The notes beneath the pieces were generated by a model. The model saw only the letters and a list, made by a program, of their open reading frames with translations, ran no database searches and had not been told where the DNA came from. A stretch of 64,000 nucleotides of DNA. It comes from Bordetella petrii (GTDB lineage Bacteria > Pseudomonadota > Gammaproteobacteria > Burkholderiales > Burkholderiaceae_B). The translations under genes and the position numbers were made by a program. This document shows, in pieces, positions 38,046 through 52,218 of this stretch. The first letter of the stretch is position 1. Each line of letters starts with the position of its first letter. The stretch spans positions 186,001-250,000 of the forward strand of contig WMBV01000003.1 in the NCBI GenBank assembly GCA_017745595.1, written 5' to 3'.

Positions 38046-38358
38046 GATGGCGTAATGAGCCGGGGAAGGGGAAAAACGGCGTCAGGCAGAATATCACATG
38101 GGGTTTTGCCGGCCCTGACGGAATAGTCTTCTTCGGCGCCGCGGCGGGTTGAGTTTCAGGTGTTCAGGTCAGGGTTTCAGGTGTCAGGCTCCGCAGGTGC
38201 CTGACACCGCGGCGTGCAGAAGATCCAGGCGTCGGTGTCTGACACCCTTCGGGAGTCAGACACCTGCTGCGGACGGCGCCGTGAAGCCAAGGCGCTCGCG
38301 CCCCCTCTAATCTTTGTCCCGCCACCACCGCCCGGGACCAGCTAAACTCCCGCCCATC
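38046..38358. other. Divergent gap between ilvA and YqaA-like gene
   Basis: The 313-bp gap contains a repeat pair (38179-38265) in its middle. The remainder should carry both promoters. No attenuator-like leader peptide is obvious. Confidence 0.55.
38179..38265. repeat. REP-like inverted pair
   Basis: Unit 38179-38208 is shortened in the loop and has paired arms GGTGTCAGGC/GCCTGACACC. The inverted unit 38234-38265 has GGTGTCTGAC/GTCAGACACC. The spacer is 25 nt. Confidence 0.92.
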
Positions 38359-49889: not shown

Positions 49890-50588
49890 TTACCGTACAG
49901 GGACCTGTGCGGTAAACCGGTATCCGCTGCCGCGCACGGTTTCCACGTGCGCGTCGTGGCCGGTGGGTTCCAGCGCCTTGCGCAGGCGGCGGATATGTAC
50001 GTCGACCGTGCGTTCTTCCACGAAGACGTGGTCGCCCCACACCTGGTCCAGCAACTGCGAGCGCGAGAACACCCGCTCGGGGTGGGTCATGAAGAAATGC
50101 AGCAGGCGGAATTCGGTGGGGCCGATCGACAGCGACTGTTCGTTGCCCGACAGGCGGTGCGTGACCGGATCGAGCTTCAGGCCGCCGACGTCGATGATGT
50201 CGTCGGTCAGTTGCGGCGCGCGCCGCCGCAGCACCGCCTTGATGCGCGCCATCAGTTCCTTGGGCGAGAAAGGCTTGGTGATGTAGTCGTCGGCGCCGGC
50301 CTCCAGGCCGTCGACCTTGTCCTGCTCGGCGCCCTTGGCGGTCAGCATGATCACCGGCACGGCCCGGGTGCGCTCGTCGTCGCGCAGCTTGCGCGCCAGG
50401 CTCAGCCCCGACGTGCCGGGCAGCATCCAGTCGAGCAGGATCAGGTCGGGCAGTTCGGCGCGGATCAGGGTCTGCGCCTGTTCCGCGTCGAAAGCGCGCA
50501 GAACCTTATGGCCGGCGAACGACAGGTTGACGGCAATGAGTTCCTGGATAGCGGGTTCGTCTTCGACGACAAGAATGGTGCTGGACAT
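49890..50588 (-). CDS. phoB: Phosphate-regulon response regulator PhoB
   Basis: This 232-residue OmpR-type regulator has the phosphorylated Asp53 (LILLDWMLPG), Thr in VIMLTAKG, Lys in ITKPFSPKEL, and a winged-helix domain ending HVETVRGSGYRFT. The start at 50588 gives the family N-terminus (STILVVEDEPAIQEL). Its 5' region contains one arm of the large inverted repeat (stem edge 129 nt upstream of the ATG). Confidence 0.95.
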   Translation of the reverse strand: MSSTILVVEDEPAIQELIAVNLSFAGHKVLRAFDAEQAQTLIRAELPDLILLDWMLPGTSGLSLARKLRDDERTRAVPVIMLTAKGAEQDKVDGLEAGADDYITKPFSPKELMARIKAVLRRRAPQLTDDIIDVGGLKLDPVTHRLSGNEQSLSIGPTEFRLLHFFMTHPERVFSRSQLLDQVWGDHVFVEERTVDVHIRRLRKALEPTGHDAHVETVRGSGYRFTAQVPVR

Positions 50589-50716
50589 AGAGTAAGAGGC
50601 TGGCAGTGGGCGCCGGGGGGCGGCGCGAACATTGCGATAGTATGGCCGGAATATTTCAGGTATGTGACTTGAGGCGGGTTGGGTTGTGATTTGCTGGGGG
50701 TGTGGTTCTTCTGGCG

Positions 50717-50989
50717 TCGGTGTGTGGGGGGCGAGCCGGCCGGGCTTCACGGTGCCGTCCGGGCGCCCCGCGCGCCCGGGCCCGGCCCCGAGGCGCCCGG
50801 CCGGCTCGCCCCCCACACACCGACTCGCGATGCCCGCATGCCCCGCGAAGCCGGGGCGGCCCGGGTTCTTGCTTTCTTTTGCCGCCTTCTAGAAGAGAAA
50901 AACATCTTGCAGGGCCGCCACGCCCCGGCGCCCTGCGCGCCGGGGCGTGGCATTCGTGGCCGGGCAGGCGACGGATGCTTCTTCGAGGT
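50717..50989 (-). other. Structured element, phoB-side copy
   Basis: Hairpin I has a perfect 29-bp stem (50717-50745 with 50795-50823) around most of the core (50743-50797). Hairpin II is short (about 50840-50857, GCCCCG/CGGGGC). Hairpin III has a perfect 15-bp stem with a CCTGC loop (50917-50951). Strand is given in the direction of phoB. Transcription of this copy is not shown by the sequence. Confidence 0.6.
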
Positions 50990-51066
50990 CGGGGCAGGAT
51001 GTGTTCGTTATGGGCAGATGGTTGCCGTCGCACAAGATCGTCGAACAATCGCAACACGTCACTCGA

Positions 51067-51339
51067 ACCTCGGGCACGCCCCTTGCAGCGCGCCGCCCGA
51101 ATGGTCCGCCGCGCCGCGCAGGGCGGCACGGCGGGCCGGCCCTGTACTTTTTTCTTTTACCGGCGGGCTGCCCGCAAGTATGCAAGAACTCCGCCGCCGC
51201 CAGCGGCAGCGGAATCCAGCGCTACTGCGAGTCGAGGCGGGGGTGGGGAAGCGCCGCGGCGCCTCGGGGCCGGGTCCGGGCGCGCGGGGCGCCCGGACGG
51301 CACCGTGAAGCCAAGGCGCTTCTCCGCCCCCGCCTCGAC
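51067..51339 (+). other. Structured element, ubiE-side copy
   Basis: Hairpin I has a 25-bp stem (51231-51255 with 51315-51339) around the core (51258-51312); its two non-Watson-Crick pairs are G.U in a plus-strand transcript. Hairpin III has a 12-bp stem with one mismatch and a GCAGG loop (51106-51134), the complement of the other copy's loop. The stem sequences differ from the phoB-side copy. The copy ends 109 nt before the ubiE ATG. Confidence 0.6.
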
Positions 51340-51447
51340 GTCCAGAAGAAAGAATTCCACGACGCAAAAAAACGGAAAACACCCTCGCAGCCAACGCGAC
51401 CGCAAGCCCGATCGGCTACCATTCCCCCATATCCCCGGGATTCCACT

Positions 51448-52218
51448 ATGCAACAAACCCCAACTCCCCCTTCCGACTCGGCCTCGTCCACCACGCATTT
51501 CGGCTTCCAGTCTGTCCCCGAAACCGAAAAGGCCCGCAAAGTGGCCGAGGTGTTTCATTCGGTGGCGTCGCGCTACGACATCATGAACGACCTGATGTCG
51601 GGCGGGCTGCATCGGGTCTGGAAGGCCTTTACCATCGGGCGCGCCGCGATCCGGCCCGGCATGAAAGTGCTGGACATCGCCGGCGGCACCGGCGACCTGG
51701 CGCGGGCCTTCGCGCGCCGCGCCGGGCCCACCGGCGAAGTCTGGCTGACCGACATCAACGATTCCATGCTGCGCGTGGGGCGCGACCGCCTGACCGACGA
51801 CGGCCTGCTGCTGCCCACCGCCGTGTGCGACGCCGAACGCCTGCCGTTCCCGTCGGGCTACTTCGACCGTGTCAGCGTGGCCTTCGGCCTGCGCAACATG
51901 ACCCACAAAGACCGGGCCCTGGCCGAGATGACGCGGGTGCTCAAGCCGGGCGGCAAGCTGCTGGTGCTGGAATTCTCGCGCGTGGCCAAGCCGCTGGCGC
52001 CCGTGTATGACTGGTATTCCTTCAATATCCTGCCCTGGCTGGGCAAGAAGGTGGCGCAAGACGAAGCCAGCTACCGCTACCTGGCCGAATCCATCCGCAT
52101 GCATCCCGACCAGGACACCCTGGCCGACATGATGCGTACCGCCGGCCTCGAGCGCGTGCAGTATTTCAATCTGACCGCCGGCGTGGTCGCCCTGCACGAA
52201 GGCGTGCGGCTGGCCTGA
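51448..52218 (+). CDS. ubiE: Ubiquinone/menaquinone C-methyltransferase
   Basis: UbiE C-methylates the quinone ring with SAM. The 256-residue product has [37 protein letters not shown], the SAM loop [15 protein letters not shown] and [16 protein letters not shown]. Its N-terminal 15 residues are Pro/Ser-rich. It begins a run of ubiquinone genes (ubiE, ubiJ-like, ubiB). The structured inverted repeat lies upstream. Confidence 0.95.

What the first reader, a model, noticed from the sequence alone, without database searches (positions are those of the whole stretch)
50717..51339. Giant structured inverted repeat between phoB and ubiE
Two arms of 273 nt (50717-50989 and 51067-51339) match in opposite orientation, with short conserved islands in the same order and nearly the same spacing. 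The islands are a 55-bp core, CGACTCGC, GTTCTTGC, AGAAAAA, AGGGCCG, CCCTGCGCG, CATTCG and CGAGGT. Sequence between the islands has diverged. Conserved unpaired segments with variable stems are what a functional structured RNA or DNA element looks like, not a recent duplication. I do not recognise it as a known family.
Basis: partly seen in the sequence, partly recalled or inferred. Interest (0 to 1): 0.88.

Follow-up and report, generated by a model that had tools for sequence, protein, structure and literature searches.

The report
Paired giant DNA hairpin element
Between two Bordetella genes sits a pair of large DNA hairpins belonging to a widespread, apparently undescribed family of repeats that spread like small transposons, stay paired while their stems change, and lie in DNA whose composition is skewed even inside the neighbouring genes.

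Summary
The arms (50709-50965 +, 51089-51346 -) are two copies, tail to tail, of a roughly 260-nt module: long hairpin A, linker with conserved islands, short hairpin B. A covariance model finds it in 9 of 9 genus and 63 of 268 family genomes; two queries found no plasmid or phage record; Rfam has no match. Covariation is overwhelming: 386 double-changed cells against 104 in shuffles. The pair is one unit (30 of 31 multi-arm clusters). In one relative eight ~890-bp units are about 90% identical in unrelated flanks without target duplication; none of eight relatives has an intact unit at phoB-ubiE. Stem switches between orthologous arms rarely look like G-U steps (29 of 68 A-U/G-C), so DNA-level maintenance plus selection on a nearly invariant apex fits better than a classical RNA. 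New: a strand-specific G/T-rich, C-poor gradient in 100-150 bp of outer flank, reaching third codon positions of neighbours, absent from control gene ends; read outward it resembles a Rho-loading site. Best reading: a new family of REPIN/MITE-like mobile DNA hairpin pairs, long resident near gene ends, possibly transcription boundaries. The mover is unknown.

The parts
50709..50965 (+). left arm: full-length copy of the module (model R1 positions 1-259)
   Evidence: 210 bits with the covariance model; this arm is one of the 42 sequences the model was built from
51089..51346 (-). right arm: second full-length copy, tail to tail with the first
   Evidence: 206 bits; also among the 42 model sequences
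50716..50824 (+). hairpin A of the left arm: variable paired lower stem plus conserved apex with internal mismatches
   Evidence: inverted repeat I3, fold, covariation over 42 copies
51231..51339 (-). hairpin A of the right arm
   Evidence: fold, covariation
   Evidence: T39-C88, T40-G87 and A42-A85 in 42 of 42 copies; 1-7 of 58 apex columns differ between orthologous arms
50821..50828 (+). island CGACTCGC at the 3' foot of hairpin A
   Evidence: alignment A2
50865..50872 (+). unpaired island GTTCTTGC
   Evidence: alignment A2
50894..50902 (+). A-rich island; T-rich when read outward
   Evidence: alignment A2
50917..50951 (+). hairpin B of the left arm, variable stem, loop CCCTGCG
   Evidence: inverted repeat I10; 11 of 14 pairs with changes on both sides
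51103..51137 (-). hairpin B of the right arm
50966..51088 (.). inner spacer between the two arms; its length varies between units
50669..50708 (+). left outer flank, G/T-rich on the strand running into the arm
   Evidence: GC skew 0.74; general skew over 71 flanks
51347..51408 (-). right outer flank, G-rich on the strand running into the arm (C/A-rich on +)
   Evidence: GC skew 0.29 on the inward strand (last 60 nt before the ubiE block)
49890..50588 (-). phoB, neighbour, 5' end towards the unit
   Evidence: TIGR02154 375.5 bits, cut-off 296.2
51448..52218 (+). ubiE, neighbour, 5' end towards the unit
   Evidence: NF001240 434.3 bits, cut-off 378

Best explanation
It is one member of a family of non-autonomous, REPIN/MITE-like mobile DNA elements whose two ends are large structured hairpin modules facing each other tail to tail. 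SHOWN: the pair is the unit; it exists in many copies; units of about 890 bp have multiplied in one relative without a detectable target duplication; at other loci arms have stayed at the same site across species while stems changed in paired fashion and the apex hardly changed. INFERRED: a trans-acting enzyme, not identified, recognises the hairpin (apex mismatches and an end motif like G-TTCT-N3-GG-CGTCG) as folded DNA and moves the unit; during replication the hairpins are copied onto themselves (template switching), which keeps stems paired through one-step double changes; selection keeps the apex and islands. After insertion the units persist mostly just past gene 3' ends, where they may also separate neighbouring transcripts.
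For: Covariance model matches in 9 of 9 genus and 63 of 268 family genomes. Pair as unit: of 48 clusters with genes on both sides, 31 show two or more arms; 30 of these have a + arm left of a - arm, one is a doubtful -,- case, none is reversed. Mobility: 8 G002 units, 7 of them 89.0-90.9% identical to the eighth over 884-923 nt in unrelated flanks; target duplication no better than shuffled pairing. phoB-ubiE: 151-284 bp between start codons in 8 relatives against 859 here; the profile finds no arm in 7 of 8 and a remnant in the eighth; the covariance model finds none in the 8. Structure: 96.0% of 2556 cells paired, 386 cells changed on both sides against 104.3 shuffled and at most 73 when slid. 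Orthologous loci share arms; in 12 orthologous comparisons the apex differs at 1-7 of 58 columns, linkers at 16-48 of 87-90. Switches in 10 comparisons: 68 WC-to-WC double changes, 29 A-U/G-C; transition share not above linkers (0.43 against 0.52, p 0.17); adjacent double changes 22 against 14.3, or 15.5 with column-preserving shuffles (17 and 25 of 2000 reach it). This is as expected for template switching (PMC8794818, abstract and opening text read).
Against: No transposase gene with these ends was found; the one long-spaced G002 pair that I read encodes nothing convincing (by eye). No match among plasmids or phages, unusual for an active mobile element. Absence from phoB-ubiE in relatives could be loss: G005 holds a remnant and G007 an end-like sequence. 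The apex constraint and persistence in place argue for a host function as well. 36 of 104 pair differences between orthologous arms involve a non-WC pair, so intermediates do occur. Hairpin A's lower stem is strand-asymmetric (A-C/C-A 45, G-T/T-G 6), which pure template switching does not predict. The flank gradient is not explained by mobility.
Confidence: 0.5

Rival explanations
1. Bidirectional transcription boundary: RNA reading outward through either arm passes hairpin B, a U-rich patch and hairpin A, then enters about 100 nt of C-rich, G-poor, unstructured RNA where Rho loads and stops it before it invades the neighbour; exonucleases trim back to the hairpins. May hold together with the best explanation.
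For: 28 of 48 clusters lie between convergent genes against 33 of 242 control gaps without element. 55 outer flanks are next to a gene 3' end (median 37 nt), 16 next to a 5' end (median 119 nt). Inward-strand GC skew is +0.62 at 10-20 nt and about 0 at 150-200 nt, and reaches third codon positions: C 0.17, G 0.64 in the last 8 codons against 0.43 and 0.38 in control genes (335 control genes before a length filter). Composition rather than a motif. Same skew at 5'-adjacent flanks, in genus g4 and in G002. Rut sites antisense to genes, C>G bubbles and 3' trimming are known for Rho (PMC12350095, passages read).
Against: No RNA data. [quoted passage not shown] The convergent bias also fits tolerance of insertions, as for REPs. 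In the window both genes point away. At phoB-ubiE the relatives without an intact unit are not uniformly unskewed (left side -0.14 to +0.45 on short stretches), so site preference is not excluded. A large structured unit is not needed for Rho.
Confidence: 0.3
2. A functional structured RNA (sRNA, leader or 3'-UTR element).
For: Covariation and conserved unpaired islands. Wobble asymmetry suggests an outward RNA for hairpin A (29 copies against 3, 10 ties). Hairpin A alone is more stable outward in 79 of 89 arms.
Against: Whole arms are more stable outward in only 38 of 89 and the hairpin B region in 30 of 89. G-U nearly absent. Few transition switches. No sigma-70-like site in the stretch by a simple consensus scan. 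Divergent position in the window, so no gene transcript is expected to run through.
Confidence: 0.12
3. A break-and-repair hot spot: the palindromes are cut or stall forks, the inward strand becomes the 3' single strand on both sides, and mutation or selection there makes it G/T-rich and recombinogenic.
For: The skew is mirror-symmetric about the unit and seen whichever way the neighbour points; long near-perfect palindromes; the polarity matches the strand left after 5' resection (inference).
Against: No Chi-like word stands out (GCTGGTGG 5 inward, 2 outward in 14112 nt of 98 flanks). The synonymous change is mostly loss of C with gain of G, not the C-to-T of simple deamination. Units persist at the same loci across species.
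Confidence: 0.1
4. REPIN-type element moved by the resident RAYT (Y1/HUH transposase) in trans.
For: 6 of 9 genus genomes hold a Y1_Tnp gene; inverted hairpin pairs without target duplication recall REPINs.
Against: No such gene in G002 or G004, which have the most matches of the model. The six loci, about 2.2-3.3 kb each, carry no copy of this module (best E 1.7); several carry repeated palindromes of about 31-34 nt instead.
Confidence: 0.07

Closest known systems
REP / REPIN / BIME elements (GTAG and CGTC super-families; PMC3733652, passages read)
   Same: intergenic palindromes, inverted pairs, many copies, mostly downstream of genes and between convergent or co-directional ones
   Different: REPs are 20-40 bp; here each arm is about 260-315 nt with two hairpins and conserved islands, and stems vary between copies while staying paired; no RAYT link found
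TIRs of 'TIRYT' genes (same paper)
   Same: long terminal inverted repeats forming dispersed families, some double-palindromic
   Different: no tyrosine transposase flanked by this module among the 6 loci examined
MITEs such as Correia/NEMIS, ERIC, RUP (PMC2229807, passages read)
   Same: non-autonomous, inverted ends, foldable
   Different: described there as under 200 bp, mostly A+T-rich and making target duplications; these units are about 640-890 bp, GC-rich, with 260-315-nt structured ends and no duplication detected
BRE of Bordetella (PMC3110155, passages read)
   Same: repeat family of Bordetella and other Betaproteobacteria
   Different: about 90 bp, often in tandem; its sequence figure was not available to me, so the difference is judged by size and arrangement only
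Template-switch-maintained hairpins (PMC8794818, abstract and opening text read)
   Same: multibase compensatory changes
   Different: described for RNA genes; here an intergenic DNA element

Membership tests
REP/REPIN with RAYT | short palindromes of 20-40 bp with an unpaired GTAG or CGTC tag | tested here: not met
   arms of about 260-315 nt; CGTC occurs at the foot of hairpin A, partly inside the stem
REP/REPIN with RAYT | same repeats flank a RAYT gene | tested here: not met
   0 of 6 Y1_Tnp loci carry the module
REP/REPIN with RAYT | inverted dimers in intergenic space | tested here: met
   30 of 31 multi-arm clusters
MITE | several similar copies with unrelated flanks | tested here: met
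   8 G002 units
MITE | no coding capacity | tested here: inconclusive
   in one unit the longest ORF lying wholly inside is 117 aa (L103 1008-1361 -), in GC-rich hairpin DNA; not compared with protein libraries
MITE | target site duplication | tested here: not met
   best candidate no better than shuffled pairing
MITE | cognate autonomous transposon with the same ends | tested here: inconclusive
   one long-spaced G002 pair read, without a clear gene
Rfam RNA family | match at gathering score | tested here: not met
   0 matches in the window and in 6 other loci
Intrinsic bidirectional terminator | stem followed within 0-2 nt by a T tract | tested here: inconclusive
   4 pattern matches in the stretch, 1.1 expected; the conserved T-rich patches lie several nt from the main stems
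Rho-dependent terminator (rut) | C-rich, G-poor RNA ahead of the stop zone | tested here: met
   outward strand of 71 flanks
Rho-dependent terminator (rut) | Rho-dependent loss of transcript | not testable with these tools
   needs a transcription assay
BRE (Bordetella) | 75-91-bp repeat, often in tandem | tested here: not met
   unit size and pair arrangement differ; sequences not compared

The most novel reading that the evidence does not exclude
A class of chromosomal hairpin-pair elements, mobile in origin and then kept by the host, that mark the borders between genes: they impose a strand-specific C-poor composition over 100-150 bp on each side, including synonymous codon positions of the neighbouring genes, so that any RNA leaving the element becomes a Rho-loading site, while hairpin-templated DNA copying keeps the stems paired.
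Probability: 0.22. Interest if true: 0.8.

Novelty: new variant of a known kind. Interest (0 to 1): 0.62.

Why it matters
It adds a large-module family to bacterial mobile palindromes and gives a natural test of whether paired stem changes must mean RNA selection: here the covariation is overwhelming, but its spectrum points to DNA copying, a warning for covariation-based RNA discovery. The mirrored composition gradient reaching third codon positions is measurable and open to direct test (Rho loading, single-strand exposure or something else).

Tried and rejected
Loop-to-upstream pseudoknot in hairpin B (GCAGGG with CCCTGC): column 210 against 234 shows no covariation by eye; rejected.

RAYT as the resident mover: not supported. 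Chi-like motif in flanks: none stands out. Flank skew as a general property of gene ends: 34 convergent and 107 co-directional control ends in 400 kb of G004 show none, nor do control codons. Skew caused by the neighbour's transcription: as strong at 5'-adjacent flanks. Skew as site preference: not settled; at phoB-ubiE the six relatives without unit or end-like remnant range from -0.14 to +0.45 on the left side over short stretches.

Strand of a putative RNA by folding energy: contradictory between hairpin A, hairpin B and whole arm. Rfam at permissive threshold: five matches far below their cut-offs, chance. Plasmids and phages: none with two queries each.

Mended on checking: included L012 against L030, whose arms are opposite, not orthologous. 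Without it the switch and adjacency figures are those (68 instead of 76 double changes; 22 adjacent instead of 26); support weakens but stands, and I left the odds as they were. My first statement that relatives at phoB-ubiE show no skew was too strong and is corrected above.

Literature: searches showed no description of this family in their listings; the library lacks most subscription journals.

Full report
CHECK. The two arms exist where stated and are far beyond chance. Each folds much better than shuffles. phoB, phoR and ubiE are confirmed by family models; the unit lies in the divergent space between phoB and ubiE.

FAMILY. A first DNA search of 41 genomes gave matches in 12. Regions around best matches were fetched and an iterated profile gave 60 full-length arms. 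42 of these 60, all of the roughly 258-nt form, were aligned as A2; 17 arms of about 300-310 nt and one aberrant arm (L038, 2121-2378) were left out. The covariance model R1 matches 9 of 9 genus genomes, 63 of 268 family genomes in 9 of 43 genera and 4 of 399 genomes drawn from the order, all four of the same family. The searches score only the best candidates, so copy numbers are lower bounds, and match counts include antisense matches of the palindromic hairpin. 2 and B. genomosp. 7, so the genus is Bordetella; that G003 is B. petrii is recalled from its genome size, and that genus g4 is Achromobacter is a guess from genome size. Distant relatives that I read share the architecture, most with a larger, branched apex in hairpin A. 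Rfam has no match at its cut-offs.

STRUCTURE. Two helices, 61 pairs: 96.0% of 2556 cells paired, 39 pairs with changes on both sides, 386 such cells against 104.3 in shuffles and at most 73 when slid. The structure came from the same alignment, which favours it, but the gap is very large. Apex mismatches T39-C88, T40-G87 and A42-A85 are in 42 of 42 copies. A-C/C-A mismatches exceed G-T/T-G in hairpin A's lower stem (45 against 6; 29 copies against 3, 10 ties) but not in hairpin B (7 against 6). Copies share ancestry, so such p-values are optimistic.

UNIT AND MOBILITY. Of 48 clusters with callable genes on both sides, 31 hold two or more arms, 30 in the order + then - (one has a third arm); the remaining one is -,- with an ambiguous partial; 17 show one arm at the threshold. 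Some clusters are the same locus in different species, and partial arms that hold only the palindromic hairpin A have a doubtful strand. In G002, 76 matches include eight units of nearly constant size, seven of them 89.0-90.9% identical to the eighth, in unrelated flanks, without target duplication. The ORFs in one such unit do not look like a gene, but were not compared with protein libraries. At phoB-ubiE the eight relatives have 151-284 bp between start codons against 859 here; G005 keeps a remnant, and G007 an end-like sequence seen by eye; the covariance model finds nothing in those eight loci. Y1 transposase genes occur in 6 of 9 genus genomes, not in G002, G004 or G008, and their loci lack the module. 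No plasmid or phage record matches the window unit or a G002 unit by blastn at E 1e-5; this would miss diverged copies.

HOW THE STEMS STAY PAIRED. Many loci are shared between species. In 12 orthologous comparisons (one search lists also one mispaired comparison and one within a genome, both dropped) the apex changes at 1-7 of 58 columns while linkers change at 16-48 of 87-90. [quoted passage not shown] 29 of the 68 are A-U/G-C, 19 are G-C/C-G. In Bacillus RNA terminators 79% of switches are A-U/G-C, mostly through G-U (PMC5381666, passages read). Double changes sit next to each other more than expected (22 against 14.3 and 15.5; 17 and 25 of 2000 shuffles reach it); with eight comparisons that use no arm twice, 18 against 11.0 and 11.8 (10 and 19 of 2000). 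This fits template switching (PMC8794818, abstract and opening text read) with selection on the apex, better than stepwise RNA selection. A hairpin that must pair as RNA on both strands would also disfavour G-U and is not excluded.

FLANKS. The strand running into each arm is G/T-rich and C/A-poor: over 71 flanks GC skew is +0.62 at 10-20 nt, +0.37 at 40-60 and about 0 at 150-200. The innermost ten bases hold the conserved GTTCTT and were not used for this claim. It holds at 55 flanks facing gene 3' ends and 16 facing 5' ends, in 14 arms of genus g4, 16 of G002 and 4 of G008, and only weakly in six arms of other genera. Control gene ends in 400 kb of G004 show none (34 convergent, 107 co-directional). 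At 54 adjoining gene ends third-position C is 0.17 and G 0.64 in the last eight codons against 0.43 and 0.38 in control genes, back to control values by codons 24-40. No word is enriched beyond composition. Whether the element causes the skew or lands in such sites is open: at phoB-ubiE the left side is +0.74 with the unit, +0.51 with the G005 remnant, +0.10 in G007 and -0.14, -0.09, 0.00, +0.12, +0.26 and +0.45 in the others, on short stretches. The gene calls come from a simple codon-usage script of mine, so single boundaries may be wrong.

CONTEXT. 28 of 48 clusters lie between convergent genes, against 33 of 242 gaps without element. That fits tolerance of insertions there, as for REPs, as well as a boundary role.

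VERDICT. A new, large-module family of mobile palindromic DNA elements with long residence and probable host use. The mover is unknown. The Rho-loading reading of the flanks is attractive but untested.

Noticed in passing
window 38128-38302: Remnant of a second unit: an outer end and one side of the hairpin A apex survive, with GGTGTC-type repeat hairpins in between; the same locus holds arms in L023, L029 and L049.
   Followed up: partly
L111 900-2200: A G002 pair with 1.9-kb spacing whose neighbourhood holds several TTTCACGTG(A/G)AAC words resembling the parS partition site (recalled motif).
   Followed up: no
L018 2266-3560: The spacer of one unit is filled by about 325-bp tandem repeats that each contain a copy of hairpin B.
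   Followed up: no
G003 contig C1: 10 of 11 clusters (one a 49-bit partial) lie within about 1.45 Mb of dnaA at base 1 of a 5.29-Mb chromosome; may only reflect core gene position.
   Followed up: partly
L144-L149: Y1_Tnp genes of six genus genomes; several are surrounded by repeated palindromes of about 31-34 nt, perhaps their own REP family.
   Followed up: no
G002: Nine of the listed matches in this draft genome lie within 600 bp of a contig start, so the family seems to limit assembly there.
   Followed up: no
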